Positions 7,179 to 59,299 of a stretch of 64,000 nt of DNA are shown piece by piece (positions within the stretch are counted from its first letter, which is position 1; each line of letters opens with the position of its first letter). A program made the position numbers and the translations under genes. The notes beneath the pieces are model-generated. The model searched no databases, was not told the DNA's origin, and saw only the letters and a program-made list of their open reading frames with translations. The stretch is from Opisthorchis felineus (Eukaryota; Platyhelminthes; Trematoda; Opisthorchiida; Opisthorchiidae). Location: contig SJOL01002760.1 of NCBI GenBank assembly GCA_004794785.1, forward strand, positions 190,843-254,842, read 5' to 3'.

Positions 7179-7414
7179 GGGCATTTACGAAGTGAAAAAC
7201 GCAACAAAATTTATCCACCTGAATTTACTGAGCATAATATACGCCTTTCTTTGCATCAGTTTTGTCCAATAATTTTGTCGAAATGTGTCGATAGAGTATT
7301 AGGTCTTGCCTCTTCCGGAATGGGTACTTTCTGGGACCAAGGTGGATGCCGCCATTCACCCAGTAAATTCGCTCTTCCGCTCACAGTAGAATACACCGAT
7401 CATTCTAACGCTCC
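7179..7414 (+). pseudogene. Peptidase-like P1, exon with DRVLGLA segment (family A1)
   Basis: An acceptor ending ttgctgattttcag precedes the exon and a GTAAGC donor follows at 7,415. The exon enters in phase 0 and leaves with two bases (phase 2), as does the matching exon of P2. Its core DRVLGLASSGMGTFWDQGG aligns without gaps to DGSLGLAPSGLDTFWDQGG of P2, and the nucleotide match continues through 'cttccgctcacagtagaata'. In pepsin-like enzymes this is the conserved (F)DGILGLA strand after the flap. The usual Gly is Arg here. I call it a pseudogene or divergent homologue because no DTG exon is found upstream and the second site is altered. Confidence 0.72.
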
Positions 7415-7898
7415 GTAAGCTTGCCAACGAACTGACATTTTCCAAGAAGAACTTTGGCGGGAAGTGTGGTGCGGTACGTTACACCAGATGAAGCTGTCCC
7501 AGGCAATTCGAACTTATGGGAATTGTCAGTAGTTTGGGGAGATTTTGAAAATTCAACTGAGAATTTGTCCTATGGTTGAATCCAATCTATACTAAAAAGT
7601 CAAGTAGCGCTGTTATCGTTTGTGTATTTTCCAGGAGGGAGTGGGTTGGATTCAAATGTCGGCGTCAGGGGGCTGAGGAACAGGATTAGTGCTTTAGGGA
7701 ATTCTGGTTGGCATCTTTAATGCGTTGGTCAATTAGTTTAACAGGTGAGTTCAATTTCCGGGATATAATTTATCTTGCGATTGGTGTTCATGCCGCTTGT
7801 TCCACTGTTGGTAAAGACGCCACCGAAAGGAACGGGCGATTTATTGGTCTCAAGCATTGACACTCTGCCTGAGGGCATGAACACGAGGACGGGCACCA
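7415..7898. other. Probable intron of P1
   Basis: This lies between two plus-strand exons that align to consecutive parts of pepsin-like proteins. A middle exon (the counterpart of P2 14,344-14,459) would be expected here. A stretch near 7,480-7,560 is open and contains two Trp codons, but I cannot align it convincingly. Confidence 0.4.
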
Positions 7899-8087
7899 AT
7901 GCCGGATATTCCAACCCAAAGGAGATGGTGGGAAGATTTCCCAGTTGACCAAATTAAAGCATTGACTGGAACTCTTGTTATCCGCGGCTGTCCGCTATAT
8001 TCTACAAAGTTATTTAAAGTTATCCACAATAAACTGGAGAGATGTAGCATACCTGATTACTTGCCGTACGTCAGTCTGGAGTTATAA
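7899..8087 (+). pseudogene. Peptidase-like P1, second active-site region, Asp lost
   Basis: The frame reads IKALTGTLVIRGCPLYS, then a KLFKVIHNKL helix and YLPYVSLEL, ending at a TAA. Aligned to family A1, TGT...G.P matches (D)TGTSLI.GP, with the catalytic Asp replaced by Leu and a one-residue length change. The following helix and the LP..-L strand match P2 (PEMYSGIISLI, then ALPRYAALTV). Several short nucleotide blocks also match the P2 exon. The premature TAA and missing Asp make a working protease unlikely. Exon borders here are uncertain. Confidence 0.5.
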
Positions 8088-8156
8088 TTTAAATGAGTAG
8101 TGTGCGCAATGTTTGTCCCTTGGTTTGATTTGAGATATCGAGAAATTTGGAGATAT

Positions 8157-8396
8157 TTAATAAACCCTACCATAGAGAAAAACAGTTAGGTGAATTACAG
8201 TCGGGTCGCCCAGCAACGCAAACTCATTTAAAAAGGAGTATTTATCGCTCATCGTCAAATCAGCGTCCACGTACAAAATGGGCCATTTGGCATACTTGAA
8301 GTGTCTGACTTGCTGATCAATAAGTGTGAAGTACCTACTTTCACTCATGATTTTATAGCCTGGGGGGAGAATTGCGTCCCACAAGCAACGTTTCAC
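8157..8396 (-). other. Unassigned exon-like open frame
   Basis: On the minus strand a strong acceptor (attctccccccag, exon starting near 8,361) opens a frame that runs to about 8,166, where a GTAGGG could be a donor. It contains PILYVDADLTMSDKYS and GDPTVIHLTVFLYG. Two readings compete. One is a thioredoxin/PDI-like strand (VDAD...KY...PT). The other is a family A1 second-site region, since P-x4-LTV-x3-G-x-V matches the P2 exon at 13.7 kb without gaps. Neither is strong enough to name it. Confidence 0.3.
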
Positions 8397-8399
8397 CGG

Positions 8400-11300
8400 C
8401 GTTCTTTGACAGAGCCGGAACGTTCATCATGAACCACATTAATATCAATATGTTCCATGGGCAACAGCTGAGTTACTGGCCGCTGATTAAGTGGCTGTTA
8501 GACTATTCGCCGAACTTGTCAGACGGCTTTCAGGCTACATCACCACAAACTCTATGCTCGTGTGTGGCGCGGAGTGGCGCGTCTAGTTAACATGAGAATA
8601 AGGCAGGCTATCTACCAAACGCTTCAAACTAACGATTGGGACTCATGGTCGACTGATTAAATCACTTATAGAATGGCTTTGCCCAAAAAGCATATTACCT
8701 CCACTCCCAGGTTTGGTCTATAGATATAGTATCTAGTAAACAACGTCTTGGAATAATTAAGACCTTGAACGGGGTTGCCACTCACTGTTGGTGATCTAGC
8801 TTTTTTACTCGGCCCACACAAGAGTTCGCCTATAATGTGAGCATATTTCACAGATAACTAAAGTACTTCGGATGTTAGAGCAGGATCATCTTGCGTCCTT
8901 CCTGAAAATTAAGCTGTACTGAGTAGGAAACAATGGCAATTTAGTTTCACGTGGTTGAACACTGGTAACTGAAAAATTGTGAATTTCACTATCAGCTCTC
9001 AATTCTGAAGATATATGCTACCTAGTCGGCAGAAATCCGCGCAGCACTCTCCCTCACGACCATTACGCCTAATATTTGGTGTTGTTTTTCGAACCCGCGG
9101 TATAGGCTGAGAAGAAAAAAGTTTTTCGGGAAGATATGTATTCAGGGTTGTCCGAATGATTTAGTATTCTGGCATTCAAAAGTGGCCAGGTGATGTTTGG
9201 ATCTAATTTCCTATGTAGTAACCTAGAGGTTCACGTGCTCACTCAAAGGCATCTCTCAAGCGTAAGAGACTTAGACCTATAGGGTTTCTCCTGAATAAGT
9301 GAAGGTTTGGAAACATGTGTTTTATAATTAAAAAAACGGTCGTTTTTCTGCAGTCTTGTATCGATATTATTTAACTAGGCTTATCAAATCACCAAAACTC
9401 ATCAGTCCATAATTCCTCCTATCGTTTAGTTTAGTGTACTTTCTGAATTCACAAAATGACACAGTTCACTGCAGCTGTGTACAGATGTTTCAGTTTTACA
9501 CCACACGCATTTTTGTCACCAAAGCTTGGATGAGGTTCTTGGTTCTTCAGTTATTTACATTTTTTCGGATGAGTTTTCTACTCACGGCGCGTACCTTGAC
9601 ATGCAACGGAAACTGATGCCTACTACATTCAGCTCCACGCACTGGATCGTGATAAATAGAACGTCCAGATCCCCTTGATATTGTCAACCGGGTGCCCGTC
9701 CCCACTTATTGGACATCTGTATGTAAAAGATATCCACGCCAAACTACTAGTGTATTACTGAATGCTCAGCACTGCACTGATCACTGGTAGTCTTTCATCG
9801 TTGTTATTCATTGAACCGATCCCAAATGGGCACCATACGTTCTTTCAGGCTTGCGAGCCTTTGCCTAACAGAAAGAAGCAGTCGCTCCAAGGTGGAAGTT
9901 TGACCAGGTCCGAGAGCTGAACTTGTTTTTTTCTCTTTTTGCGGTATAAGGAATTGCAGTGATGATGTTGCCCTTGACAGCGGAGTTGATCTTGTTTGGT
10001 AGATTCATCACTCTGTGGTTAATGAGATTTGCAGCTGGAAATCCGAAACCACGATTACTTTGGCTTTCTTGTTTTGTTTTAATGCAGTAGATGTTATTAG
10101 CAGAACCGGTCTCTTTTGGCTTTTCTTGATTATTAAGTAGGATTTCATTAAGTACCGCTAGATGTGCGTGCAGCCCTTGCGTCCTTTTTCCTCAAGAGAC
10201 TTCCGCAATTCCGATCTATTTCCTCCACCCTTATCCTCACATTCAAGGTTCTAGGTCACAGAAAACGAGTCTTCCCTGTGATCACTGTACGCATCATGTG
10301 CAGGGACGTAAAGGTTTTCCACTGTTGCGCTTGAAAATATGCGTTTTTTGGGTACTCCTCGTCGAGGTTCTGGCTTCAGTGTCTGACCGAATGGAATGAA
10401 CCGGAGGCCCAGTAAGTCAGATGTGAACGCCTGATACTGCGCACAACAGATGTCTCCTGAGCACCCCCGGATCCTTGGTGCTCAAAAGTATTTCCAGGTG
10501 CGCAGAAGTTAGGACTAGTATCTTATAATCCCTCTTTATTTTTGGAAAACATTATTGCTGACTTCAAGAAATTTGAGAAACGCGCTGCCTGGAAGGAAAC
10601 ACTGCTGTTCTCACACACTTGCACAAGCAAGCTACACGGCTGATGAAAACTAACGCGAGTAAACTTGTCTGCGGTGTTTATCACATTGGTCTGGACTCAC
10701 TAGAATAATTGCTCCACGACAGGAGGAGACGTACGGTGTGAACGTGGATTCCACAAATCCCGCAACCAGCTAAAACCATGTATACAGTCCCTTTAGTTTA
10801 TAATCGCGTTGCAATACACTAACGGCTAACAAGGTTACCCAGTATCAAAGGAACTTTTGTTGTAGTTTTGCGGCATACGTCCCCACTTGGCCGGGTTCTT
10901 CTTTTCACTTCTACTAGACTTTGTGGAGGAAGATGATTCACTCTAAGGTACGACTTTCTTCGTAAAATGCAGTACATAGTGCTAAAAACCGCGATTCCTC
11001 TAGCTACCAAATCACGTTAACGCGTCAGCTTTTGACGTTAGTACACAACTCTCCCGTTCCATTTACAAATCACGATGTGATGTCTTATCTTATGATTGTG
11101 ATTTTGCATCTTCTTGTTTGATCCCTATTGTGTTCAGTTTCCAAAAGACGTGCAAATTGTTTGGTCTCATTCTAGTAGGACTGTCCTGCTACTCAGTTGA
11201 TAATAAACAACTATGTTTAAAGGCGAAGACTGGATGCTGATCAGGTAGCAGTTGGACTACTTTCCGAGCTCGTCTAACAAACGTTTCTTCGCGAATCGAA

Positions 11301-13189: not shown

Positions 13190-13351
13190 CTAGTCGAATC
13201 GCGGATTTTTGGCGATCTGCAGAAGTGCATTCGCACCGCGTTTCAATTGTAGGTTAATTCGGTGTAGAAAGTCGGTTCCCAGTGCAAAATAATTTTTGTC
13301 GTGAAATCGAATAGTGCTGAGAAGGAGTACGTCTCCAAATAGGGTTGTGTG
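13190..13351 (-). CDS. Peptidase-like P2, terminal exon (family A1)
   Basis: An acceptor (gttaatttggcag) at the right edge opens a phase-0 frame that ends with TAG at 13,190-13,192. It starts TLFGDVLLLSTIRFHDKN, which matches the C-terminal WILGDVFLR.YYTVFD..N block that closes pepsin-like proteins, with LFGD in place of LGD. A basic tail follows. The preceding exon ends after a whole codon, so the phases agree. The Cys-containing loop usually found before this block is absent, so either one small exon is missed or the loop is lost. Confidence 0.6.
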   Translation of the reverse strand, partial: HTTLFGDVLLLSTIRFHDKNYFALGTDFLHRINLQLKRGANALLQIAKNPRFD

Positions 13352-13887: not shown

Positions 13888-14343
13888 CTGAATGGAAAGA
13901 AACAGTTTGAGTGGGTAATCGAACATGTGCACGAGTGCAAAAAATGATATTTATTCGAATGACATTCACGATATAGCATACAATATTTGAACGTACAAGA
14001 TTACTCATAAGATTTGTGACTGCAATCGATTTCGCCTTGATGTTGACTACCGTGAACGTGAGATATGACTAAATTTTGAATACTTTCGGGGAAAAAGCAA
14101 TTTTCTATGAAAGCAGAGTCTCTGGCTAATATTTTCAACAAATTTCAGCAACTACTTTTATTCGCACACGAATTTGGTTTTGACAGGAGCGTCCAATGAA
14201 TTAGGCTAAATTTCTAGTTCATGGTGGTCGGCTTTAGATCAACGTACAAAACCGGTGCTTGTCTGTCAAGGTATTTTCAGCAACCTTATGAGAAGTTTTC
14301 GAGGTCTGGACGACAGAGGATTTCGGTATTTTGAATATCATAC

Positions 14344-14459
14344 CAGATGAATGATAAGGTGGCCTGGCGCAATGGCGCCCGAATGGGACCATCGTAAGCG
14401 AGCAATTCGGTTGGGTCTTCCGCCAAAACAAAAGCGTTTTGCAAATGAGCATATTTGTC
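14344..14459 (-). CDS. Peptidase-like P2, middle exon
   Basis: The frame reads KYAHLQNAFVLAEDP, then ELLAYDGPIRAPL and SFI, ending two bases into a codon before a GTATGA donor at 14,343-14,338. It aligns with the minus-strand P4 exon at 56.8 kb (KYTHLYTSFVLTGGSP), including the donor position and the first intron bases (GTAYGATATTC). In pepsins this covers the F-S-V-Y-L strand to the Trp before the second site. The exit phase fits the exon at 13,644-13,887. The entry phase (0 after the TAG acceptor) does not fit the exon at 18,374-18,564 (exit phase 2), so either the acceptor is misplaced or the frame is broken. Confidence 0.62.
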
Positions 14460-17400
14460 CTATTTTGTGCAAATTTGGTTCAGGTAGTATGTAAAGTTGA
14501 CAGACATTCTAGAATTGCACCTATCTGATGAGCCCAAAGCATGGTGAAGCTGGCCATGGGCTGTCGAATAGTTTTCAGTAACTTTATGGGTCGTCTACAG
14601 CTCTTTTGTCATGGAATCAACAAGTGCTGTGTGAACATCTCAGTCTCACTGAAGTCAGCACGAACGATTCAAAGTTATGGTCAGCGAAAACAAGCTGAGA
14701 AATACACTTACTATGGAGACCCTGAACGCGTGAAATATTTGATTTCCGTATCCAAATGCTCGAATCTTATGGAGCCCGGTTTATTACTGTATACCGTGTT
14801 GCACACAGGTTGATCATGTTGGGTTTGTTCAAAATACCTACAGAGCGCCACTACAGAGAAATTTACATTTGAAAATCAACACCAATGCATCAACTTGCTA
14901 AATATAGGAAGATTGTGGAAAAACTCCGGTGGGAATGCTTATGTCCATACTATCAGACACAGGGTGACTAATAATGAGGTCATGTTGTTCCCGAAGAAAC
15001 ATTTGGAAGCATTTCGTATAACAATATGACTGATGGAATCCTAACCATTCAACTCACTTGGAAACAATAATTGACCAGCGGTTTTGAGATGCCAACGGAT
15101 ATGTTTCATAAACCTGATGTCCTTCTTCACCCCTCGAACGTTGACATTTGATTTCTACATTCCGTCTTCTAAAAAATGACAGACCGGTTTCTATGGTTGT
15201 GGCAACGTAGATGGTATAATGCAGGTCGTGAAAACTCCAAATTCACTGAGTAAGTAAATGTACTTTCAAACTGCAACATCGAGATATAATAGACGATAAT
15301 TTATATATATGTATATATAGATATATATCTGGGGCCGTAGTATACAAACAAAACTTCAAAAAACGCTTTGAGCAAACTGAATCTGACATTTATTTGTATG
15401 GTAAACGGGTCTCCCTAGATAACGCCGTCTGATTTTCATTGGCCGGAAATTATGTGAAACAGTTTAGGCATTGACTTCCTAGATCATACAATCTTTCGGT
15501 TGTTCAAACCGATTCCTCAAAATTCTCCAAACACAAACGAACTGAGGCAGACGTGGATTGTTTACTACCCGAGCACAGCGTACACAGGTCATTGCCTAAC
15601 AATTCAACAATTTCCTAAATTGTGAAGATGGATTTCACAAATGGCGGATGGCAGTATTAGCGATAGAGATTAAACTGAGAAGGTGATTGGACCACTTATG
15701 TTGCCATGTCTCCGGCAGATATAGGAAAACAATAAATTTCATTCACCGTTTCTAATTGCAATTGTTGGTTAATATTCCAGCAACGTTGTGGAGTTATGAT
15801 ACGTGTTCACAATAACCCATCATTGTGATTCCCGCCCTGAAAAAGACCACCTCTGAAAAAAAGACAAAGAGTGTGTCTCTTGACTGCTGGGTCGTACTCT
15901 TCACAGAAAAATAAACTCTATGAAGCAGGTGTTCGATTTGACTGACGCAGAGTCAGTGCATGCTTGTTATCTAAGCAATTTTTCTAGAGTATCCAGCATG
16001 GTAACCAGCATGTGTTTGTTCCAAGAATTGACGTGGGTATCGGATTATTGTATGTGATGACATCAAACTAAGTTGTCAAACAATACTTTCTCCCCTAGCT
16101 CAGAGAAGCGATCTTGTACGTGCTTATTCAAACGTGCCCCGGTGGGTGTTCCAAATAATTGGCCGATCTTCCGAATGTCCAAATGCGTGATGATGATGAT
16201 CCCAAAGCACAGCTGTAAAGCTTTTCACGGCTTCACATTGATTTTACATGCGAGATAAAATCACTTTATATCAAAATTTCCTATGAAGCATGAATAAGAC
16301 ACCATATATTGAGAAGGAAATAAAGTTTTGCAATTGAGATATGCCAGAGATCCGAGAATTCATCGTTCGAGACGCGACTTAGTGTCGAATAGCGTGATGT
16401 GAGCTTTGTGGTTATTGGCGGCCAGAATAATATAGGATATGTGCACCCTCTCCACTCGAGTCTGTAGGGTGTGACATGTGAAGAACTACGGACATAATCC
16501 TCCCCTCACCCGGACACAACACTCCGGTGCAACCGAGTTAGGCGATCATGAGTGTTCAGCGCATCCAACTGTTTTAGGGATATGAATTACACAGACCGGT
16601 TCAGCTGGGACGAGCAGAATGCTGATTTAGCGGTGAGCGCACATGGACAAGCACAACTGACGAAACGAATGCAAGCCCACCAGCCCAACGGCCGATCAAT
16701 ATTCCTTGCCTTGATGTCTAGTCTGGACGCAAGAGAAACCTGCAAACTTTCCCCATGGTATTGGCATAGGTTTCCATTTGAGAAAGCGAGCGTTCCTAAG
16801 TAAATTGAGTGAATATACATGGGTCAATTTAGACGAGTCAACTGCAGAACCAGAGAGAATTATGGAATGGGCAGCAGTAAATTTTATTGATACACTTAGG
16901 GGTAGCATCTTAGGCTCGTCCGGAAAACATAGTCTACGACTGAACAAATCTGAAAAACGATGGAGTTTGGAACAACCCCTGATTATCATGAGCAAAATTT
17001 GACCAGCATGTGACTACTTCCACTAGATTATAGCAGAGTTATCGTAATACAATTTGTCGAATGAAGTAAAATGTGGACAATCTGTTTTTAGCTCATTCGA
17101 CGATATCAAACACAGAACGTGGCCAAAGGGAAAATGTGAAGTGTTGACTGATCGATTGCAGCCACGCTTCTTCGAGTCAGGTCAATGAACGATTGACTGC
17201 TCTGCCATTATGAACTTCTATTGACCTTTCGAAATCTTCCCAGTTCCGCAATTTATGAGTAATTCGCTAGGCGAAGTCCCACAAGATGCGTGGCTTTTCC
17301 GAGGAGATGCGGAATTGACTGTTCAACACCTAATGAAAAACGAGGTGGCGAATGAGTAACCTGCTGCCCAAATATTTGCAAGGTTGGCTGTTTTACGCGT

Positions 17401-18373: not shown

Positions 18374-18564
18374 GTGAGATATTCAACTGAGAGAGGAAGT
18401 CTTGATTTACTTGCTGGGCGAAAACAACCACCTTGATCCCAGAAAGTGTCCAGTCCTGAAGGCGCAAGTCCCAGTGATCCATCGAGATCATACATTGACT
18501 CCATAGCCGGCCTGACCGTTGTAACCGACATGAATCGATAAGGGTCAACAACAGCCCGACCAAG
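18374..18564 (-). CDS. Peptidase-like P2, DGSLGLA exon (family A1)
   Basis: The exon starts after a TAG acceptor (gcttttcgtgtag) and ends at a consensus GTAAGT donor (18,373-18,368). It reads in phase 0 and leaves two bases over. It encodes a strand region followed by DGSLGLAPSGLDTFWDQGG, the family A1 (F)DGILGLA element, and matches P1 7,179-7,414 closely at protein and nucleotide level. The intron separating it from the previous exon is only about 40 bp (18,604-18,565). Very short introns near gene 5' ends are known from schistosomes and related flukes. Confidence 0.8.
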
Positions 18565-18604: not shown

Positions 18605-18808
18605 CTGCAAACTAGTAGTGAAAATATTTCCGGTCAATTCGTGGTTCCTGTAAGTGCGACACACAACATCATGCTGTGGGTTTGTCGGCTGAAATCCTCC
18701 CTGTTTTACCAAAGGCGAAACTATCCAAGAGTAGCTAGAACCGGTATCAACTTTAATATTGCGAGGCAAAGGTTCACCAGCGATATGCATCTTCATAACA
18801 AGGAGTCC
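18605..18808 (-). CDS. Peptidase-like P2, first active-site exon with DTGSS
   Basis: An acceptor (ctaattatttcaag) opens a 68-codon exon that ends CAG before GTATAT. It encodes IAGEPLPRNIKV, then DTGSSYSWIVSP, an exact match to the family A1 first-site consensus DTGSS-x2-W, and later HELTGNIFTTSLQ, matching the YG(T)GS.sG.l..D.v flap-side block. Pepsin-like enzymes cleave peptide bonds with two Asp residues, one from each lobe. This lobe keeps its Asp; the C-terminal lobe at 13.8 kb does not. Exon borders coincide with those of P4 at 59.2 kb. The signal peptide and propeptide exons, expected upstream (above 18,809), were not found. Confidence 0.78.
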
Positions 18809-20087
18809 CTTGAAATAATTAGTTAAAAAATTAACAAAGTTACTTGGTGGTTTGGAGCCAACGTCGATTTAAATTCAAATCGTCGCGTCCTATTCAGCAA
18901 AACGTCATCCATAGAGGAAATATTTCCGGTCGTCCCTGCAGGTCGAAACTGAAGGTTCGAACTTTTAACTAGGTTAGTTTGGATTGGCCCAGTTTACCCA
19001 TTGTTCAACACACCATTCAGTTCGACAGCGCTCAACAGTAGTCCCACAAAACACCAAAACATCTTGATGCGCAATAATATTTTTCCGAGAGGTTTCTTAC
19101 TTAGTTAAGTATGATTGCTCATTAAACTGGTGCGTTGAGATTATTGGATGATCGAATGGACCAGTCAGTGCAATTGAAGTACTATGGATTAATACATTCG
19201 GGCAAACCATTCTCGCTCCAATGGTGAATGCTACACATGTGTGCATGCCCATGAAACCAGCATCCAAATGGGATGAAATTAGATACTGAAAGGACATTTT
19301 AGCCAGTTCATGTTGGGTGCAAAACCAAACATCCTAGATTATTATATGTTGATATTTCATTAGAACAGATTTCGCATTATTTCTATTAAATGATGCACAG
19401 ATTTTGTCACCATACGCTACCAGAAATTCCTTGTCACATTTTTCAGTCCATACACAAAATGAAAAATGCTATCCAAAGCTTGAAAAGGTGTTCTTGGTAC
19501 GTGAAAATCATTTCTGAGTAAGTGTGATGAAAAATCGTTTAAGCAACATTGACATCAGTAAACCTGTGCGCATACAAGCGCCGCTTTTTTGCAAAATCAT
19601 TTTTGTCACTTAGTGTAAACATGAAGTCAAGTGAAACGATTGCAAACAATCGCTTCACCAAAACACGAGAATGTTTATACCAAAAAACAGTAGTTCAGTT
19701 TTGTATTTGCCATCCAATTTTTCTAATTTTCTCCACTGGTAAGCCACTCAGTCAGGATCATATGGAGGATAACTGTAATCATTGCATACCAGTTTCTTTC
19801 GGGCAAAATAAGGTGGTGTGATTACCTGCCTGTGTTTTGATTTCTTGTTTGGTCCGCCCAAATTATGTCTCTCTCTCGTTTCTCTTCTCGGAGGAGCAGT
19901 GGAGAGTGCACAGAAGAACCTCGAGAAACCTCTTCATTGTAGAAGCAGGATACCGCTACTCTGGGTGACAAGCAGCAGTAAGTTTCACGTAGTTTACGCC
20001 ACATGTACAAATCTAATGTGGTGTCATTTCCGAACGTCTCCAACTGTACTGCAGTATTGCAATGCCTTCGGGGACGTGCAAATCAGA
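18809..20087. other. Upstream of P2; no exon recognised
   Basis: Signal-peptide or propeptide exons of P2 would be expected here on the minus strand. Short open frames exist but none shows a convincing hydrophobic leader with a donor. Confidence 0.4.
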
Positions 20088-25729: not shown

Positions 25730-25760
<31 letters not shown>

Positions 25761-35739: not shown

Positions 35740-37230
35740 AGTAAAGTCCTTGGAAGTGAGACAGCAGCCAGCTGGACGCCGTGGGCATCAGAATTTGGTA
35801 AATCTGCCCCGGTCTTCCTGATTCCAGAAGCAACCTCGTCTCCAGCTAGTCCGTTGGGAATTGCACAACTGCCCAGGAAGCGACTGTCACGCCAATCTAC
35901 AAAACTGGTGACCGACTATGGCCCGGCAGCTACAGGCCTATTAGCCTCACTAGCGTGCCGTGCAAGGTGATGGAACGCATTCTGAAGCGAGCCATCCTTG
36001 ATCATCTTACTTCCAACAACTTGATATCCCCAGTTCAACACGGATTCCCCTCAAACCATTCTTGCGTGATGAACACGCTCGTATTCATGGACAGCTGAAC
36101 CCAAGCCAAGGACGAGGGACTCAAATCGGATGCCATATTTTTCGACTTCCCAAAAGCATTCGATCGAGTCCCACACGTCCCGCTGCTCCATAAACTCGAT
36201 TCTTACAGGATTTAAGGGGAAATTCTGCACTGAATTAGGGTGTTCTTATCAGACAGAACATTCCGAGTGAAAAGAGGCTCAACATGCTCTTCTGTCGGCG
36301 CCGGCCTCCATTGGAGTTCCTCAAGGCTCCGTTCTGGGACCACTGCTGTTTCTGATATACGTCAACGACATTCCAGATGTTCTTGCAAGCCCATGTCCAT
36401 TTCTTACGGACGACTTGAAATCCTGGGGCTCCAATGCCAGTGCCCTCCAAATGGATGTAGGCGCTGCAAAGCAGTGGTCATTAGAGTGGCACCTTCCTGT
36501 GAATGACGAAAAGCGCGTCCATATCTCATTCGGAGGTAACTCAGCGAAAGCCTTTGTTGTGTATGGTGAGAACGGACCAGAAGGCATCACGAAGATAAAT
36601 GCCAAAAAGGGATTTGGGTATCTGGCTCTCTTCAAACATGTCTTTTTCACTGCATCAAGAAAATCGGCTTACAAGGCATTCGTCGCTCCATGTTTAATTC
36701 TACACACCTTCCACCGTTTTACTCACATGGACTTCCAGATAATCTATGATGCCTACGTGAGACCGCTTCTTGAATGTGCCAAACAAGTTGTCCACTGAGG
36801 ACGCAAGACGGAAGTAACCCTCAATGAGGGTATCCGGCAAGCTGCTACGAACATCTTTGCCTCCGACGCTGCTTGACCTCTTTCCCCTGGAGTATCCTCG
36901 CCTCCGAGGTGACCTAGTACTTACTTATGCACAGTATGAGCAAGGTTTATCAAGCAGGTTTCCATCGGTGACCCATCTTGCACACGGCAGTTACTTGTTA
37001 AGAAGATTTTCATGCTCAAAACGCACACCCTTATTAGGCAGCACATTTTCTCATTTCAAGTATTTGGCGCGTGGAATAAGCTTCCTCCGACGGTCATCCC
37101 CGCTGCACCCAGTACCCAGTTCAAAGCATTTTGAGGCCCTTTTGTTGAATCCTTGCACTGGCGTGCCTACTTTCTCGCGCTGAGGACCTTGAGAGAAGTG
37201 CTTCACCCTTTGTTGCTTTTGCTTTTTAGT
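35740..37230 (+). mobile_element. CR1-clade non-LTR retrotransposon, 5'-truncated and decayed
   Basis: The plus strand preserves the RT and C-terminal regions of a CR1/jockey-type element over several frames. Near 35.9 kb: TVTPIYKTGDR...GSYRPISLTS. Near 36.0-36.2 kb: LISPVQHGF and FFDFPKAFDRVPH. Near 36.3 kb: GVPQGSVLGPLLFLIYVNDIP followed by LTDDLKSWG, where the usual A/T-DD keeps both Asp residues. From 36.6-37.2 kb a diverged C-terminus reads YVRPLLECAKQVV, then [19 protein letters not shown]. In-frame stops and frame changes make it non-functional. The N-terminal endonuclease region is absent, as expected for truncated reverse transcription. No poly(A) or target duplication is evident. 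Confidence 0.9.
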
Positions 37231-40200: not shown

Positions 40201-40498
40201 CCAGTCAACTGGCTAACACGCACCAATCCACCTAGACTTGGAAAACTCAGTGGGCCAAAATGGACGAGATGAACATTTGGGAGTTCTGATTATTCCATAT
40301 GTCCTGGCAGGAAGCGTATAACCTTTCTGGTGTGCAGTGATCATCGAGCAATTGACGCCCTGATACGGGAGGAAGACGTGAGCTATTTCATCAACATTTC
40401 ACCATCAATCATATTGTTGACAAACTGGCGCATTGCATGTTTACCGGCGGCAATCACGAAGAAACATGTTTAGGTGAAGTCATCCTCATTGGTTGGGC
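37231..40498. other. No gene recognised
   Basis: This stretch lies between the CR1-like fragment and the left arm of the inverted repeat. All open frames are under 95 codons with no nameable motif. Confidence 0.45.
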
Positions 40499-41401
40499 AC
40501 AATGCAGTTTTGAGTTTAATGGCGATACAGTTAGTGGACATAAAAATCCCGTTATTATATCCTGCTGTCTGTTTAATTTGCATCAGACACCAAATGCCTG
40601 TTCGCTGCCTGTTGCTGTGTAACCGGCGTAACATTTTCCCCAGACAACTTAGGCCTCGTTCTAGCCGCGTCCTTCCCCCGGATTACTCTGTCAACTCTGT
40701 CTAATCACGGGTGTCTATTTCGCCTTGCTCTGACTAACATAAACCAAAGTGATTTCAGAGCTTCTCATTCCAGGAGCGCGTATACGCCAGGAAGAAAAGA
40801 GTCTGCCTGATAATGCGCAATGAATAATTTTCTTGCAAAGCTCAACAACCCACTAAGCACACAAACGTAATATTGTGGTACGCCACCGCTTGATATGTAA
40901 GCTCACAAACACACTCCCTCGCTGTTCATCCATGTTGCACACGCTCTGAACATCTTTAATCTAGTCCCATTGTCCCAATGCTAGCTGCCGTTTCAGTTGC
41001 CTCCTCAGAGACCTGCCTGTTCCAGCGGTTGTTTGCCTGATTGAACTGACTGAGCCGTTCTACTCTCCTGGCTTTCCCCTGACCGGAAAAACTATCCGGT
41101 AGCTGGAATTCTTTATTAATGTACAGGCCGCAATTATGAATGCTTGTTGGCTTGCCATCTTGCAGATCTGGTTGCGTGCGCGAAGGATGAAAATCTCGTA
41201 TATTGGTCTGGTGCGTCCTGCAGGGCAGGTCGCCATGTTGCGTTGCACCATGGTTCGTTCGTAATCCCACCGTCCCTCCAGTGGCACGGGTGCACTGCCA
41301 CTCGTCTATGTTTCTGAAGCCGGCCTTTAACTCAGCAAGTCCATAAAATATCACTGTTGTTGTCTGTTTGTAGCCGATTATTTCGATTTCTCCTAGTTGT
41401 A
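40499..41401 (-). repeat. Left arm of a large inverted repeat (903 bp)
   Basis: Each base n here pairs with base 86,189 minus n in the right arm, with no gap over 903 bp. By eye I find about four mismatches, among them near 41,310-41,330 and at 41,399. The arm contains an open frame (40,956-41,432, minus) of 158 codons that runs past the arm's inner edge, and a second one at 41,060-41,287; both reappear in the right arm. The translated product is not recognised. The flanking three bases CCC appear on both sides of the arm as read on the minus strand, a possible short target duplication. Confidence 0.95.
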
Positions 41402-44787: not shown

Positions 44788-45690
44788 TATAACTAGAAGA
44801 AATCGAAATAATCGGCTACAAACAGACAACAACAGTGATATTTTATGGACTTGCTGAGTTAAAGGTCGGCTTCAGAAACATAGGCGAGTGGCAGTGCACC
44901 CGTGCCACTGGAGGGACGGTGGGATTACGAACGAACCATGGTGCAACGCAACATGGCGACCTGCCCTGCAGGACGCACCAGACCAATATACGAGATTTTC
45001 ATCCTTCGCGCACGCAACCAGATCTGCAAGATGGCAAGCCAACAAGCATTCATAATTGCGGCCTGTACATTAATAAAGAATTCCAGCTACCGGATAGTTT
45101 TTCCGGTCAGGGGAAAGCCAGGAGAGTAGAACGGCTCAGTCAGTTCAATCAGGCAAACAACCGCTGGAACAGGCAGGTCTCTGAGGAGGCAACTGAAACG
45201 GCAGCTAGCATTGGGACAATGGGACTAGATTAAAGATGTTCAGAGCGTGTGCAACATGGATGAACAGCGAGGGAGTGTGTTTGTGAGCTTACATATCAAG
45301 CGGTGGCGTACCACAATATTACGTTTGTGTGCTTAGTGGGTTGTTGAGCTTTGCAAGAAAATTATTCATTGCGCATTATCAGGCAGACTCTTTTCTTCCT
45401 GGCGTATACGCGCTCCTGGAATGAGAAGCTCTGAAATCACTTTGGTTTATGTTAGTCAGAGCAAGGCGAAATAGACACCCGTGATTAGACAGAGTTGACA
45501 GAGTAATCCGGGGGAAGGACGCGGCTAGAACGAGGCCTAAGTTGTCTGGGGAAAATGTTACGCCGGTTACACAGCAACAGGCAGCGAACAGGCATTTGGT
45601 GTCTGATGCAAATTAAACAGACAGCAGGATATAATAACGGGATTTTTATGTCCACTAACTGTATCGCCATTAAACTCAAAACTGCATTGT
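44788..45690 (+). repeat. Right arm of the large inverted repeat (903 bp)
   Basis: This is the reverse complement of 40,499-41,401 with only a handful of mismatches and no indels. Read on this strand the arm begins TATAACTAG and ends CTGCATTGT(A), whose complement starts TACAATGCAG. The two ends of one arm thus form a short imperfect inverted repeat, as expected if each arm were itself a small terminal-inverted-repeat element. A frame of 132 codons (44,835-45,233) repeats the left arm's frame. Because the arms are nearly identical, this says nothing about selection on the protein. Confidence 0.95.
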
Positions 45691-48600
45691 ACCCGGTTCG
45701 TAGTGTGGATTTGTTGAGTTAAGAATTGGGCAGGGCCACGGCAGCTTCACACATGATGGTGTGTGCTATTTCGAAGCTGTTCGGAGGGCTGTTTCGGATG
45801 TGTAGTTTAGTACGAGTTGAAGAACACACTAAGAATTTGCTGGAGTTACGGAAATTATCGTGAGGATATATCCTAACGCGCTTTCTTAAATTATTCCATC
45901 AGGGTTCGCCAATTTTCGCTATTTGTGTCCTTATAGATAGGTAGGATGTGAGTCACTGGAACGATGTCCTTACAATGCCAACGGTACTAAGTTTCTGCAG
46001 CAGAAGTTCATACGAGTCCTGGTCGATATTTTTACAGTGGAGTATCCGGTAGCCTAGGCTGGTGAGATGGTCTCAAAGAAGTGAAGCCAGTAGCCACTGT
46101 CGAAGTTCTAAGACAGGAAACCCTACTGCCTGTGATTTATGGAATTTCAACTAAAAGGAAACTGGTCATTAGGCCTTTGATGAGACTTCCAAGGGTAAGA
46201 GTATTTTGGTATCAAGGCTCTTAGTCACTTATCACAGCGATAGGTAACAAGATGAGAACCTTCTATGGGAAAAAGAAGGTAGAGAGCCGTCAGTAGGTTT
46301 TGGTAGACGATGTCACAGAATTACTGTGTGTTTGTAAAGAGACCACAGTCGCCTTAGTCCCTGGAAGCCGGCAAGGATGAAAAAGCTTGTACAATATCTG
46401 TAGAGAGGAAGTGAAAAGGGGAAGGACCTAGAAGGGCAGCTGGACCATAACGTTGCAAGAAACGACGCAGTTATCACTTCCTGGGAAGGGTGAACCAACC
46501 GCAGCTTCAGCCAGCTCACCATCGTTTGAGGCTATCAAGTCAAGTTTAAGTAAGCCCCCAGTGGGGCTACATACAATTTGGCACCTACCATCTACATTAA
46601 GTTGAGCAAGCAGCGAGGTTTACCCGGTAGGTTCTTAGTGAAAGAGCAGGAGATATCCAGCAGGTTGAAGTCACCCAGCAAAAATTTTGACGAACGATGT
46701 AGAGCAAGCATAGAGGAATTAAGATGGGACAGGCAAGCAACAGAAACAGCGAAGGGGGTGGTAGTAGTTGGAAGCAAACAACCGCTAAATGACGGTTCGT
46801 CTCTTCTTTAGATATACATATACCCTATAGAATCCGTTCCAGGTTAGAATATTCATTGGGGGTTGCACGAAATTCTATATAGATGGCCCGGCACGCTGGT
46901 TGGCTCACGCAGGAATAGGAGATGCACACATCATACCACTACGACTGAATGGAAACCCTGGAATGCGAGGCTACGTTTTAAACGTGGTGTGTCGAATAAA
47001 TAAACATGTATCTTCCATGATTTCGTGGGCTGCATTTCCGTCGTGATTGGCGCCGGTGAAATTTTCGCTTTATTGGGCATGCAATGCACCAGTTTGTCAG
47101 CAACATTGGTGAAAGTGGAATTTTGATGAAATAGCTCACGTCTTCCTCTCATTTCAGGACGTCAATAGCTCGATGAACATAGCGCACCATGAAGGTTATA
47201 CGCATCCTGCCAGGATGCCAGAACACCCTTATTTTTGTCTCGTCGAATTTGGTCTATTGAATGTTGCAAATCCTGATGGATTGCTGCGTGTTAGCCGGCT
47301 GATCGGCATCAAATAAACTGTCAGCTATGGTTGACGTAGTTTACGTCTGGCGAGTTCATTTGGATCATCTACCTTTTGTCGCATGTTATTCCTTCCGCCA
47401 GCTGTGTTCTTTTTTCTTCCTGCTATGATAGGTATGGATTATACGTTGCCAGTTTTGTAGTTGTTATGGTTTAATAGCCGAATGTTAATCGTTTGTGTCA
47501 GCTGAGTTCTCTTCGCTGTACTTTACAACCATTGCCATCCTCCATCACTTTGCTTGCGCTTCAATGATAGCCCTATCAACAGCCCTGTCGTCCCTAACAC
47601 GACTTGTAATCATCCCATACTCAACCGCAGTAGCATTCTCGCCAAATAGGGTCCTATTTCTGGGAACCGAACACAAGCTCCCTTACTTACGTTTTTAAAC
47701 TGACTCTTTTGTGATCTCTTTGCAAGCCGCTCTTTGTTTCAGGCTTTCCCAAAGCTCTTGTCCATGTCTGTCATCTGCAAAAGACGGCACAGTCGACAAC
47801 CCTCTTTACAGTTGCATGTCCTCTCCCCAAATACATTTTTAACCCAATGCTTAGCCTCACACCAGGCCTTCTGCAGTGGAGAAAATAGTGAGCTGACAGG
47901 AAAGCAGCTTTGTCGGACGCCTGTGCCCTAGCTTAAGCTTGCTATGGTTGTAGCATTTATCGCGGGCAATCTTCCTATGAATCCAAGGCATCATATGTAG
48001 CAAGGTAAAAAATGTTGTCTCTTACTAGCCAACAGTGGCTCACTTAAGTCACGGGATGTGATATCTGTGAGGCAATTTGTTTTGCAAACCCTCCAAGCTT
48101 TTACTTAGGCAGTAACTACGCCATGCTGGGGTCAGCTTATTGTTCAACTACGCAACACCAGCGCGTACCTCACTTTTATCTCCAATATCTGATTCCTGCA
48201 CTCGTCGAAAAACTCGTACTACTCGTACTCTACAGCTCCTTCACCAGCCTAGTGAATGACGGTTAATGAAGCCCTCTAAAAAGCTTTATGTGATGGCCTT
48301 CTAACACTCTTTCTCCCCTAGAACGCTTCAATACATAAAAATCACACATCCTCAAATGCCTACCGGCTAGCCAGGGCATTTCACACGAGCGGCCTACGAA
48401 ATAAAGTGAGCTTCAACATTAATTTATGGAAGCATTTACTCACATCCTCGCATTTTTCACCCAGTTTCGTAGGCGCTTAATAACTTGCTATGATCTTAGT
48501 TGCACGAAATGCAGCTAATGCAGGTCCCTTAAATTCACATAAGAATACATCCGTTCTAACCGACCACATACCACCAACCTATACTATCCCCGCCTGAAGG

Positions 48601-54039: not shown

Positions 54040-56754
54040 CTATAATGTTGGGTGGAAATAAAAAGCTGTGAAGTTTGCTTCAAATCCTCTACTAAGCTTT
54101 TAACATTTGGCCTCTTAGGTTATTCGGACTTCGTTGAAGTTGGTAGTTTTTTCCAACTTCGGGATTTTCTGGTCTTGTTCAATTCCATGAAGACCAGTCG
54201 GGACCGACAAATTCAATCTCTTACTAGATTCGCCTCGCAACATCCTGGTTTTCATTCCTAATGCGACGCAGTACATGGTTCTCGAATGTAAATCTTATGC
54301 GATTTGTACTCGCAAACCTTCTTCTGGACTGCAACCGTACTCAGCTGGTAAGTGAGTAAGTTTTCAATGGAACTTGTCTTGTAAGTGAAATCAACTTATC
54401 CTATAGAGCAGAGAAGTTCTGTACAGCTGTTTCATTCCCATTGGGAATCATCAATAATGAAAATCTCAAGGATGCCAGAGAAATTCTAATTGCGAACTCA
54501 CGGTCAGTGGTTGAATGCTTAACACTTTGTTCAGGAGCTGTTTATCGGCATTCGGATTGGCTCCCAGTTGGACATGATGGGGCGCCACTCAACATTCACT
54601 CACGAGATTCGGTTAAAATGGTCCTGCTTTTACTAGATCTTCCAGTGAAATCTTCTCGCCTGGAAGTAACACCCAGTTTCGTTTTCCCTATGGCTGACTT
54701 TAATAGAAGATTTTCACTGGACAGCTTTGAACTGGGCATTGAATTGAACCTGTGCCCACCGGAGCTGGCCAGCAGACGGAGTTGAAAATCCACGCTGCTT
54801 TGACGAGCTTGAACCAAAGCGATTATCACACTTACTGTTCTGCATCATGGGGCCCTAGCAGAAGAAATCCTGGCAGGATAGGAAAACGACATAACTGGAG
54901 CTCGTTCAGCTAGATTCAGGAACATTCTTAAACTATTCAACGTACGTAGTTTACAATGGTTCCCGTGAGGTTTCAAAATATATCAGAATATACAGAATGC
55001 CCTTCGGTTTAGTCCCTGTCCATCTTAGCAAAGTTACGTACATTGTTTGACAAAAGGTAGTAGCTCTTTACAGCTTCTGTCACCCTGAACAGCTGGGTGG
55101 TGTGTCAGCCCAATTCGTAACGTATACAAATCAGAAACGCAAAATTCTTGGGTTAGTAAACATTGATGGCTCGAAAACACGAGGATGGTGTTATGCAAAA
55201 CACAACGAAGGTCATTGTATCAGAAAGTCATAGCGTTCTACTTGGCATATGAATATAGCCGATCTGGTTTGAATTACAAACCAACCTCTATGCGGAAAAG
55301 CTTTTGTTGACTATATTCTACACAGTCTCTTAGTAAACCATATACATTCGCCTTAGTTTTGGACCCTCTTCCGAAAACTTCCTACAACTGAATCATTTCG
55401 CTACCCCCAACACCATCATACTGAAGTCATCAGAGACTCTGGTCAATTTATTGTGGTCCGTTTGCGACTATTTCGACATTTATGTTGAAACGCGGTGTTC
55501 TAGTGACCGGACGCCTCCTTGATCAAGGGTGAATAATTGTAGACAAACCTTTAGGACAACGAAAGATGATCAAGCCAAATGGAACCTCCGTCATTGTTGA
55601 TCATTCATGTGCTGTTGGATCGTTTGAGGTCATGATAGACAACACCATGAATGGGGACACCCGTGGTTTGGGCTTCTTGGTATACTGACTAATAAATGTA
55701 GCTGACTCATGCCAACCGTTATCTTCGCCAACCCCTATAGGCCGATGACTGACTGGCATCCACCGAAGTGCATGAATGTAATGAAAATATAAGTGGTGTC
55801 TGTCCGCCAAAAAATGAAGAGAAATGACCGAGTCTCTGTAAATTTGGCAGTTGTTCAGGGTTTTCTGAGCTGAATAAATATTTTTCGAGGGATCTGCCGG
55901 GTAACTTGAGCATTGAATTTCTTGCGCACGATTTGTGCATTCAATTCTACGAATATGGTCTTCGTTATTGAAAGATCAGTTTCATGCTAGACATTGGACA
56001 CGGAAACACCCGTTTTGTGGCCGCAGATGATGACAGTTGTCATGAGCGTAATTTTCAGTCATTGATAAAATGACAGTGTAGATTCAAACCGATATTTTTA
56101 TAAACAAACGCAAGAGGAAATACGACCCCTTATGAAATCAGCATGTATTCTGATGTATAAGTCAAATGACTTGGAGCTTGTGACACAACATAATTCCGTC
56201 CGTTCTCTACCAGCATTGTATTTTACATGGGATTTTACCTGCATCTGCGGTGAATTTCTTTCAGGTCGACCGGTGGGAATCTCTTCTCATACCATTGAAG
56301 CATAACTGTTTTTGGCTGCCAGACACAAGAGCCGTATAAATGAACGACCGATTGACATCCGGCATCCCTATTTAGCGGAGTCATGTCATATATATATATA
56401 TTTTACATACATATATTTTACAGACCTCACTGATTACGAGCCTTAGTTTGTCTTCTTGGTCATGATCAAATTTGCTTAAACAGGTTTATAAGAGTAAGTG
56501 ATTTTCGACCATCAATTTACCTGGCATGAATTCGGCGGACGTAGGGAAGTGAACTCTATAGCGTACCACAAAGAGGTTGAAGCCAAAAAGAAACGACCAA
56601 ATAGAAGACGGAGATTGCAATATTGACTTCACGGATACAAATTTACAACGAAAATACAAAGCGAAACCGGCCTTGGCATGTCAAAGTGCTTTGAGCAACC
56701 TTATGAGTAGTGTATTGCGAATATACATGCATCGCGATATCTCGAATATCGTAC
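54040..56754. other. Probable intron of P4
   Basis: This lies between two minus-strand P4 segments. A plus-strand frame of 114 codons (54,441-54,785) has no motif I can name. An AT-rich patch lies at 56,388-56,423. Confidence 0.4.
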
Positions 56755-56881
56755 CAACTGAAATATGAGGCAGACTGATGCAACACATCCAGCTGTCTAA
56801 ACATCATAAATGAGAGATTCAGCTCAGTTCCAGGTGAGCCTCCCGTCAAAACAAAACTGGTATACAGATGAGTGTACTTCG
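56755..56881 (-). pseudogene. Peptidase-like P4, middle exon
   Basis: The frame reads KYTHLYTSFVLTGGSP, then TELNLSF and ASYFS, stopping two bases into a codon before GTACGA. It matches P2 14,344-14,459 (KYAHLQNAFVLAEDP ... SFI) in frame, donor position and the first bases of the intron. In pepsins it corresponds to FSVYL....GSEL.FGG up to the YW before the second site. GGS-x-GTEL is close to the pepsin consensus. The acceptor tatattag gives a phase that differs from the P2 copy by one base. Confidence 0.6.
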
Positions 56882-57260
56882 CTAATATAGTGCAATTTGG
56901 GTGCAAATAGAGCACAAGGTGGACTGAAATTCGAGAGTTGCTGCAGATTATAAGGCCTTCAAATGCATGTCATCCTTCTGCTGTCGCATCCAGGAAACTG
57001 TGATGACTATTATTTAGCGGTGTTTAAATTGACTCATTTTAATTCCTCCTATCCATCTTCCGGCGCTTTGCAGCGCTCTTGTTGCCCTCTTCAAATGAGC
57101 ATTTTAACAGCCTACAGCTCCCTACTAGGTCCCTTTGTTTTGGCCTACAGAATCTCGTGAAAATTACACAACCAAAACGCACTTCAGGAATTTCTATAAC
57201 AGTCTCACACACGAAAAATTTCTTGCAATCAGCCTAAACAACTACATGACTAGCTAAGTC

Positions 57261-57461
57261 TTAGCCCGAGGGCTCACCGTGGGGATGAGACAATAGGACT
57301 TGTTTGCATGAAGATGGAGACCAAAATGGAGTCCACTCCAAAATGATGGGGAAAATGTAACTGCAGGTACATAGCCTCTTGGAAATGTGTGAAATGAATT
57401 GGAGAAAAACAGGATGTAGACAGCTTTTACACATTACTACCGTCAGATTTACACAAAACAC
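57261..57461 (-). pseudogene. Possible P4 exon, DGILGLA-to-FW region
   Basis: The frame contains ILEWTPFWSPSSC, comparable to GLDTFWDQGGC of P2. At nucleotide level 'ggagtggactccattttgg' parallels 'ggactggacactttctgg'. It lies between the P4 first-site and middle exons on the correct strand. The (D)GILGLA motif itself is not preserved, so confidence is low. Confidence 0.33.
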
Positions 57462-57640
57462 GAGAAGCGGTCGAACATGATAAAGAGGGAATCTTTAAGG
57501 GGTAAGAATCTCTAAATATAGGCCAAGGGACGGGTTGCAGCACAGTTTGACCAGCGTGCACGCAAAATCACCGGCAATGATGGAATTCCACAGGTTTTTT
57601 CATAACTAACTTACATTTTTCCAAGGAAAAATGTTTCCAA
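57430..57640. repeat. Local duplication, unit 1
   Basis: It shares with 57,925-58,110 the order 'ccgtc', 'tt.acacaaaac.cgagaagcggt', 'aa.gagg.aa..ttaagg', 'cacaggttttttca' and 'tttttccaaggaaa'. The units are in direct orientation and diverged. Confidence 0.6.
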
Positions 57641-57659
57641 GAAAATGTAAGGAGGAAAG

Positions 57660-57960
57660 CCCTTCGCCTTGAAGTCGTTTATTGGCAAACACCAACTAAG
57701 CAGTTACAAACTACTCGACAGGAAAATAAACGTCTCATGTGCGCATAGTTTTTAAGAATGAACATCCTCACATGTCTTGTTGAACCTCCATGTGTATTCG
57801 TTGACTGCCACGCAACTGTAAACGAACACTGCAAAGCAGTTCCACAAGTCCCGTAGTAAACTTTACCTTCCATCATACGCGGGGCAGCAGTTCTAGAAAA
57901 CCACAGACTGCTCGCATCCCTCATCAGTAGTATCCGTCGTTACGCTCGGATATTTGCACA
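57660..57960. repeat. Dispersed repeat, copy 2
   Basis: Its counterpart at the window start (1-265) is in the same orientation and similar along its length, with many substitutions. The right end passes straight into unit 2 of the local duplication (57,925-58,110), so the family's full unit may be longer than the shared 265 bases. Confidence 0.7.
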
Positions 57961-58110
57961 AAACGGGAGAAGCGGTAAAATACAATACCAAGGGAACGAT
58001 TAAGGAGAACGAGGCGACCATCATGCAAGCAAACTCATCGAAATTACGGATGCTAAAATATGAATGTCGCAGGTTTTTCACAGCCGAATTGAATTTTTCC
58101 AAGGAAAGAC
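57925..58110. repeat. Local duplication, unit 2
   Basis: A diverged direct repeat of 57,430-57,640, about 0.5 kb away. Together with the dispersed repeat between them, this looks like part of a larger old element present at least one and a half times. Confidence 0.6.
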
Positions 58111-59113
58111 TTGATTACAATCAATCATACAAAGATTCGTCTTCTAAACTTAATCCGATAACCGAAATGTAGGTCGTGTCGAATGCATGCGACTGTAAGT
58201 GGAACAATATTTAACGAGTTACAGTTTCCATAATTACCTCTCGAGTATAGTCATTAGAAAATTAAAATCGACCATAATTCGTCCCTTCCTGTCAACTCAT
58301 CTCCGCTTGAAAGGATTACCCTCAAATTCGGACATCCGCTAACATTCAGATTCAACGCTGCCATTATTTGATGCTCGTATAGGAAATTTGAAGTGATTGA
58401 GGGAGTGCGAATCGGCTGTGGATTAAAAAATCTTACATGCTTTGATCATTACTACTGTGTATTACCTTTGTGTGTGAATTCCGTACATTAGATTATTTTC
58501 GGCCATATACGCCACTGAGACGTATCTTACAAGTCAAAGGGGAAGAGATCATCGGACAGATTAGTCGAGTTTAGGAAATCCGATATATTTTTCACGGTTT
58601 GTAGCTTGCGAAACCGTTAAGATTAGATTATCCATTTGGCTTTAGGTAACAAAATCTCAAATTTGTTTCCACTCTTTGTTACACCGCCAAAGGTGGGTAG
58701 GACATAGGAATGTATGAGGTGGCCGGGAGAAATACTTGAATAGTTTGCGAAAAGTGGATTCGTTTTGATCTGATGAGAGAGAACGTGAGGTGCCCGATCA
58801 ATATGAACGTAAACCCACCTTGTCTTTACTTTTCTGGTTTTAATTGACCCAAGAATATTGGACCGGACAGTAGGTCAAACCAGAACGGGATGCGGTTAAC
58901 GGACGAATGGCCAAAAAAGGCAAGTCACAAAATTTTGACAGATGGACGGTAAACTCAAGTTTGGGTTGCCATCCACTCCGGAAGTAAAGGTTTACGCGTC
59001 ATAAGCTAATCTTACGCAAGAATCGGACAAAGTTGTTTTTGACCGGGACCAGGGTAACAACGTTTCCTATCATCTGGGACCAGCTTACTCTAAGTCATAT
59101 GTTGGACCTTCGT
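58111..59113. other. Probable intron of P4
   Basis: This lies between the P4 first-site exon and the next candidate exon. No coding segment is convincing on either strand. Confidence 0.4.
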
Positions 59114-59119
59114 TTACAC

Positions 59120-59299
59120 AAAGTTAGTATCAAAAAGAACAGATAAACTACCTTCATCACCTTCAATAAGTTTAAAGGAGAATTTGGTCTTCAGTAAACT
59201 GGCTTTCGTTGTGGGCCTCCACAAATCAGTTGATTCTCCTAGGTCAAAATTGCAGTTTGATTGAAATTGAGCGAAGGAGCTGAGTAGCCCCATCCATGC
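59120..59299 (-). pseudogene. Peptidase-like P4, first active-site exon with FDLG
   Basis: The acceptor (caccgggatggttcag) and donor (GTGTAA at 59,119-59,114) enclose 60 codons in phase 0 on both sides, the same phases as the P2 first-site exon. It reads GLLSSFAQFQSNCNFD with FDLGESTDLWRP, parallel to YGTISIGTPPQ.FKVIFDTGSSNLWVP of pepsins, then KFSFKLIEG and GSLSVLFDTNF, parallel to FSI.YGTGS.SG.L..DTV. The catalytic Asp is kept, but Thr is Leu and one residue is inserted (GES for GSS). Exon length, phases and end point agree with P2, so the two are paralogues. Confidence 0.7.

What the first reader, a model, noticed from the sequence alone, without database searches (positions are those of the whole stretch)
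7179..59299. A dispersed family of pepsin-like genes in which every readable second active site is broken
Seen: at least four loci on both strands (P1 7.2-8.1, P2 18.8-13.2, P3 31.4-32.2, P4 59.3-53.7 kb) carry homologous exons in pepsin order. P2 keeps DTGSS and P4 keeps FDLG at the first site. The second site reads ELG (P2), LTG (P1), an SLG-like remnant (P3) and NSN (P4), while surrounding Cys, Gly, Pro or helix positions are often kept. Family A1 catalysis needs both Asp residues. Inference: either a family of non-peptidase homologues that keep the fold (perhaps for ligand or inhibitor binding), or a graveyard of pseudogenes.
Basis: partly seen in the sequence, partly recalled or inferred. 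Interest (0 to 1): 0.8.

Follow-up and report, generated by a model that had tools for sequence, protein, structure and literature searches.

The report
Inactive-looking pepsin relative in flukes

Summary
The P2 locus is real and better than described. Seven exons on the minus strand (19062-13190) join in phase at AG/GT borders into a 350-aa protein with a signal-peptide-like start. It passes the Pfam cut-off for PF00026 (25.0 bits, cut-off 19.9). The only relatives found in 5.77 billion proteins are one each from Opisthorchis felineus (63%) and Clonorchis sinensis (55% up to where its frame departs). All three read ELG where pepsin has the second catalytic DTG, and NCEVSFELGLV around it is the only 11-residue run identical in all three. 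So the 'broken' site is an old, shared state. P1 is a decayed tail-to-tail duplicate (pieces of E4, M and C1, doubtfully C2); its second-site region is not recognisable. P1/P2 codons show dN/dS about 0.22 (47 codons). P3 and P4 show only chance-level matches; DLG, NSN and SLG are common strings. Best reading: one maintained, secreted, catalytically dead A1 homologue of opisthorchiid-type flukes, acting by binding, plus one pseudogene. Transcription and the window's own genome could not be tested.

The parts
19014..19062 (-). P2 exon E1: start ATG and signal-peptide-like MFWCFVGLLLSAVELN
   Evidence: donor GT, phase fits E2; C. sinensis relative starts MFWFLVGLLLSAIELNG; mean Kyte-Doolittle above 2 over the first 11-residue windows
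18844..18935 (-). P2 exon E2: N-terminal segment, propeptide-like (inferred)
   Evidence: AG/GT borders, phase fits; aligned in the C. sinensis relative
18605..18808 (-). P2 exon E3: first active-site motif DTGSS (DTSS in both relatives) and flap-type Tyr
   Evidence: aligned to the pepsin D32 and Y75 regions
18374..18564 (-). P2 exon E4: DGSLGLAPSG (pepsin DGILGL region) and DTFW.QGGC
15058..15168 (-). P2 exon M: middle exon, RRNVEIKCQRS...RWSIIVS
   Evidence: listed by the splice scan, recognised through both relatives; its inclusion raises PF00026 from 17.3 to 25.0 bits
13644..13887 (-). P2 exon C1: NCEVSFELGLV, second site with Glu for Asp; then ALTVTVEGLVFTWPTHEHVYN
13190..13351 (-). P2 exon C2: YFALGTDFLHRI (pepsin ILGD region), stop codon
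13053..13058 (-). AATAAA, possible poly(A) signal about 130 nt past the P2 stop
   Evidence: could be chance (an ATTAAA also lies at 13142-13137)
7283..7393 (+). P1 remnant of the 3' part of exon E4
   Evidence: 64% over 36 aa, E 1e-11; DNA z 19.0; codon pattern; the first 73 nt of E4 have no match upstream
7635..7739 (+). P1 remnant of exon M, with a stop in the matching frame; donor GTGAGTT kept
   Evidence: DNA z 9.9, 0 of 100 shuffles; read
8775..8836 (+). P1 remnant of the 3' quarter of exon C1, frame broken; donor GTGAGC kept; second-site part absent
   Evidence: DNA z 8.1, 0 of 100 shuffles
10865..10972 (+). P1 possible remnant of exon C2, with a stop and no AG at the expected acceptor
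   Evidence: tblastn E 0.021 with the O. felineus protein, 0.29 with P2; DNA 3 of 100 shuffles as good; marginal

Best explanation
P2 encodes one secreted, bilobed pepsin-fold (family A1) protein that can no longer work by the usual two-aspartate mechanism, because the second catalytic Asp became Glu, most simply before the window species, O. felineus and C. sinensis parted. It is kept by selection on its fold. It most likely works by binding a peptide, protein or small ligand in the old substrate cleft, or by occupying a peptidase or its inhibitor, outside the cell. P1 is a dead, tail-to-tail duplicate. Shown: gene anatomy, A1 sequence relationship, the shared ELG, decay of P1. Inferred: fold, secretion, expression, loss of activity, binding role.
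For: Seven exons, all with AG/GT borders and agreeing phases, give 350 open codons. PF00026 at 25.0 bits, above the cut-off, in 2 stretches, the best at 201-336; without exon M the best lay at 64-149, so both halves of the protein match. With the three-sequence profile, 9 of 9 listed PDB sequences are A1 peptidases (renin, pepsins, endothiapepsin, penicillopepsin, chymosin), and the printed renin and pepsin alignments put ELG on the second DTG. O. felineus 182 of 287 and C. sinensis 131 of 237 identical; NCEVSFELGLV is the only invariant one of 165 eleven-column windows; shuffles of the 175 columns reach such a run in 3.5% (only columns before the C. sinensis frame loss, test chosen after seeing the data). 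The flap-type Tyr, Trp after site 1 and the Cys pair before site 2 are kept in all three. P1/P2: dN 0.24, dS 1.07 over 47 codons of E4 and the C1 tail, Fisher p 1.7e-4 on rounded counts; the two wrong frames of E4 give dN slightly above dS.
Against: Each PDB match alone is weak (best E 0.053), exons E3 and E4 alone find no A1 chain, and only 1 of 5 P2 pieces touched an aspartic-protease-type Pfam model, below cut-off. Both relatives score below the PF00026 cut-off (15.1 and 11.9 bits). The AlphaFold model of the O. felineus protein is unusable (pLDDT 30.3), so the fold is not shown. The annotated C. sinensis protein leaves the frame just after ELGLVHAF, so that copy may be broken or misassembled. 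The annotated O. felineus protein lacks the signal-peptide exons. dN/dS rests on 47 codons and a dead copy; exons M and C2 were left out. No transcript was seen. The binding role has no direct evidence.
Confidence: 0.68

Rival explanations
1. P2 is itself a recently silenced gene: the frame is still open by recency, and the locus is a pair of pseudogenes.
For: P1 is decayed; the C. sinensis model loses frame after the second site; identity among the three is only 55-63%; no transcript evidence available.
Against: 350 open codons with intact splice sites; the O. felineus protein stays in frame to the matching C-terminus; the second-site stretch is the longest invariant run; synonymous-biased change against P1.
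Confidence: 0.17
2. It is still a peptidase, with an unusual Asp/Glu pair in place of Asp/Asp.
For: First Asp and flap-type Tyr kept in all three; Glu at site 2 invariant inside the longest invariant run.
Against: The Thr and the residues after the Gly of the second motif are also replaced (ELGL for DTGT/S); both relatives have DTS, not DTG, at site 1; the first hydrophobic-hydrophobic-Gly motif reads SLG, and PMC2761423 (passages) says two such motifs are conserved in all A1 members known or predicted to be active, and that members without the active-site Asp residues cannot be peptidases.
Confidence: 0.07
3. A dispersed family of four or more loci, P1 to P4.
For: P1 and P2 are homologous.
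Against: P3 and P4: 0 of 14 exon-by-locus DNA comparisons beat all 100 shuffles, no profile hit, tblastn matches only at E 1.8 to 7.7, motif strings common in the window.
Confidence: 0.03

Closest known systems
Opisthorchis felineus CRM22_001537 and Clonorchis sinensis CSKR_200224 (UniRef: Peptidase A1 domain-containing)
   Same: 63% and 55% identical; same ELG at site 2
   Different: DTSS at site 1 where the window has DTGSS; the O. felineus model lacks the first exons; the C. sinensis model leaves the frame after the second site. Their exon borders could not be compared (proteins only).
Pregnancy-associated glycoproteins and the plant xylanase inhibitor (family A1 members said not to be peptidases, PMC2761423, passages)
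   Same: pepsin-family sequence with a lost active-site Asp
   Different: no close sequence relation found (TAXi_N matched exon E3 at E 0.055, below cut-off); [quoted passage not shown]
Bla g 2, Per a 2 and Lma-p54 of cockroaches (PMC9541408, passages)
   Same: invertebrate inactive aspartic protease homologues; Bla g 2 and Per a 2 of unknown function, a binding function suggested for Lma-p54
   Different: not returned by the searches here; different lineage; residue changes differ as far as I recall
Fluke cathepsin D (found in O. felineus proteomes, PMC11732047, one passage)
   Same: same family A1 (recalled), same kind of animal
   Different: annotated there as having aspartic-type endopeptidase activity; P2 is too divergent to be its orthologue (inference from the weak A1 scores)

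Membership tests
Peptidase family A1 (PF00026), as a homologue | profile match above the curated cut-off | tested here: met
   350-aa model 25.0 bits against 19.9, E 1.5e-5; the two relatives match PF00026 best or second but below cut-off, 15.1 and 11.9 bits
Peptidase family A1 (PF00026), as a homologue | bilobed fold with two psi-loops | tested here: inconclusive
   AlphaFold2 model of P0001, 7-row alignment, pLDDT 30.3, pTM 0.20; no fold search run on it
Active A1 peptidase | first catalytic motif hydrophobic-hydrophobic-Asp-S/T-Gly-S/T | tested here: inconclusive
   window KVDTGS (Lys at the first place); relatives LVDTSS, Gly lost. Definition from PMC2761423 (passages)
Active A1 peptidase | second catalytic motif with Asp | tested here: not met
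   SFELGL in all three; aligned to the second DTG of pepsin and renin
Active A1 peptidase | flap Tyr75 | tested here: met
   Y100 invariant, aligned to the pepsin flap Tyr in the printed alignment
Active A1 peptidase | two hydrophobic-hydrophobic-Gly motifs | tested here: not met
   first reads SLG in all three; second reads ALG in the window and O. felineus, not readable in the C. sinensis model
A1 non-peptidase homologue (as PAGs, xylanase inhibitor, Bla g 2) | A1 sequence with at least one catalytic Asp lost | tested here: met
A1 non-peptidase homologue (as PAGs, xylanase inhibitor, Bla g 2) | expressed protein without peptidase activity | not testable with these tools
   no transcripts or assays

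The most novel reading that the evidence does not exclude
The fixed Glu is functional: an opisthorchiid-type secreted A1 protein in which the second active-site loop was rebuilt around Glu, either as a specific ligand or peptide binding site or as an Asp/Glu catalytic pair, and which evolves fast in most places but not there.
Probability: 0.15. Interest if true: 0.65.

Novelty: new member of a known kind. Interest (0 to 1): 0.4.

Why it matters
Dead relatives of digestive enzymes can become binding proteins. Here a probably secreted one, found so far only in flukes, keeps its altered catalytic loop better than the rest of its compared sequence across three species, while a duplicate rots beside it. 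If expressed, it would be a distinct kind of secreted fluke protein and would change the annotation 'Peptidase A1 domain-containing' to a non-peptidase one. Inactive A1 homologues themselves are a known kind, so the surprise is moderate.

Tried and rejected
P3 and P4 as family members: rejected. The piece at 14.29-14.46 kb (reads ...LAYDGPIRAPLRQ...WYDIQ) looked like the missing middle exon; rejected, because it belongs to a dispersed repeat shared with 56.64-56.99 kb (z 35.9). 'LTG' of P1 as a second site: rejected. A direct join E4-C1 is in phase but lacks the 37 residues of exon M; replaced by the model with exon M. Structure prediction failed, so no fold search was made. Literature: CRM22_001537 and CSKR_200224 have 0 occurrences in the 10 listed of 39 papers that held at least one of four terms; 'pseudoprotease' + 'aspartic' + 'trematode' gave 0 papers. 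Searches were read as listings with abstract starts; passages were read of four papers (PMC11732047, PMC9541408, PMC2761423, PMC9209485). One F. hepatica peptidase survey removed MEROPS non-peptidase homologues from its annotation (PMC9209485, passage), so absence from such surveys says little. No claim is made that this protein is absent from print beyond these searches.

Full report
What was claimed. Four dispersed pepsin-like loci, each with a broken second active site. I tested each locus on its own, against relatives and against shuffled or reversed controls.

P2 is a real gene model. On the minus strand, seven exons (19062-19014, 18935-18844, 18808-18605, 18564-18374, 15168-15058, 13887-13644, 13351-13190) have AG/GT borders and agreeing phases and give 350 codons ending in a stop. 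The first three introns are 78, 35 and 40 nt long (from the coordinates). The start is hydrophobic and signal-peptide-like, much like that of the C. sinensis relative. An AATAAA lies about 130 nt past the stop.

It is related to pepsin. Without exon M the model scored 17.3 bits with PF00026; with it, 25.0 against a cut-off of 19.9, E 1.5e-5. Exon M was found by the splice scan and the two relatives, not from Pfam, so the rise is an independent check. A profile of the three sequences lists 9 PDB sequences at E up to 10, all A1 peptidases, best E 0.053; the P2 sequence without exon M lists 2, of which 1 is A1 (penicillopepsin, E 0.29). Exon E3 alone finds none and exon E4 alone finds 5, none of them A1. 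Of 10 pieces first scanned with Pfam (5 of P2, 1 of P1, 2 of P3, 2 of P4), only the E3 piece touched aspartic-protease-type models, below cut-off; the other 9 listed nothing. The two relatives score 15.1 and 11.9 bits, below cut-off. The relation is thus real but remote.

Relatives. Three searches of 5.77 billion proteins gave 2, 2 and 1 hits (the last being the query itself): only O. felineus CRM22_001537 and C. sinensis CSKR_200224. The method needs shared 5-residue words, and only the 7995 candidates sharing most words were scored, so distant relatives may exist. Identities are 182 of 287 and 131 of 237; between the two relatives 107 of 175 (C. sinensis counted only up to its frame loss). 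The window is therefore probably from an opisthorchiid or a near relative (inference). UniRef names both 'Peptidase A1 domain-containing'.

The second site. In the printed alignments, ELG stands where renin and pepsin have the second DTG. All three flukes read NCEVSFELGLV, the only invariant one of 165 eleven-column windows; 88 of 175 compared columns are invariant, and shuffles give a run that long in 3.5% (test chosen after seeing the data, and columns after the C. sinensis frame loss not included). Windows around the first site have 6 or 7 of 11 invariant. At the first site the window has DTGSS, both relatives DTSS. The flap-type Tyr is kept; the first hydrophobic-hydrophobic-Gly motif reads SLG. 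PMC2761423 (passages) gives these as features of active members and names PAGs and a xylanase inhibitor as A1 proteins that cannot be peptidases.

P1 is a decayed copy. E4, M and the last quarter of C1 match in order on the plus strand (z 19.0, 9.9 and 8.1; 0 of 100 shuffles each), C2 marginally (3 of 100); E1 to E3 do not match. By profile score alone only the E4 piece stands out (E 4.2e-11); the other P1 pieces (E 4.1, 9.1 and 18) are at background, so they rest on the DNA matches and their order. Donors of M and C1 are kept, so this was a duplication with introns; P1 and P2 lie tail to tail. P1 has a stop in the matching frame of M and of the possible C2, and a frameshift in C1. The part of C1 that would hold its second site matches no better than shuffles. 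Over 47 alignable codons (36 of E4, 11 of C1; M and C2 left out) dN is 0.24 and dS 1.07; synonymous against non-synonymous change differs at p 1.7e-4, while the two wrong frames of E4 (33 and 32 codons, stop codons dropped) give dN 0.38 and 0.40 against dS 0.33 and 0.34. Selection on protein therefore acted on at least one of the two lineages after the duplication.

P3 and P4 are not recognisable relatives. The profile lists no piece of either at E up to 20 among all stop-free pieces of 12 aa or more; outside P1 and P2 it lists 6 pieces (best E 5.2), and on the reversed window also 6 (best E 4.5). tblastn at E up to 10 lists one match in P4 (E 7.7, with P2) and two in P3 (E 1.8 and 6.5, with the relatives), among many elsewhere at similar E. 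In DNA, 0 of 7 exons at each locus beat all 100 shuffles; the nearest were E1 at P3 (3 of 100 as good) and C2 at P4 (4 of 100). A whole-window scan with P2 masked (30 shuffles per exon and strand) found nothing above control outside P1, with one tie (E1 at 51.3 kb). Part of P4 (56.64-56.99 kb) is a dispersed repeat.

Results against my reading. The C. sinensis model leaves the frame right after the second site (its tail matches the window in another frame, 57% over 30 residues), so that copy may be broken or misassembled. The structure model is useless. There is no expression evidence, and the window's own genome could not be searched.

Verdict. One probably maintained, secreted, catalytically dead family A1 homologue and one pseudogene copy: a new member of a known kind, with an unusually conserved 'dead' site.

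Noticed in passing
40495-41401 and 44788-45694: Inverted repeat with 907-nt arms, 99% complementary, 3.4 kb apart; an outer pair at 40302-40439 and 47078-47215 is 84% alike. Looks like a recent inverted duplication or mobile element; not identified (one frame inside had no Pfam hit).
   Followed up: partly
3918-6041 minus: Broken retrotransposon: reverse transcriptase PF00078 at 3918-4586 (E 5.9e-23) with a C2H2 zinc finger piece upstream at 5286-6041 (E 2.2e-4, below cut-off).
   Followed up: partly
36271-36795 plus: Second reverse-transcriptase fragment, PF00078 E 4.7e-7.
   Followed up: partly
56642-56989 and 14233-14569 minus: Dispersed repeat of about 350 nt (z 35.9) whose reading frames mimic pepsin-like text (WYDI...); a trap for exon reading by eye.
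   Followed up: partly
77-163 and 57774-57860: Shorter repeat, 76% over 88 nt.
   Followed up: no
P0002, after ELGLVHAF (window 13813-13724 in another frame): The annotated C. sinensis protein runs out of frame relative to the window and O. felineus: real frameshift or assembly error.
   Followed up: partly
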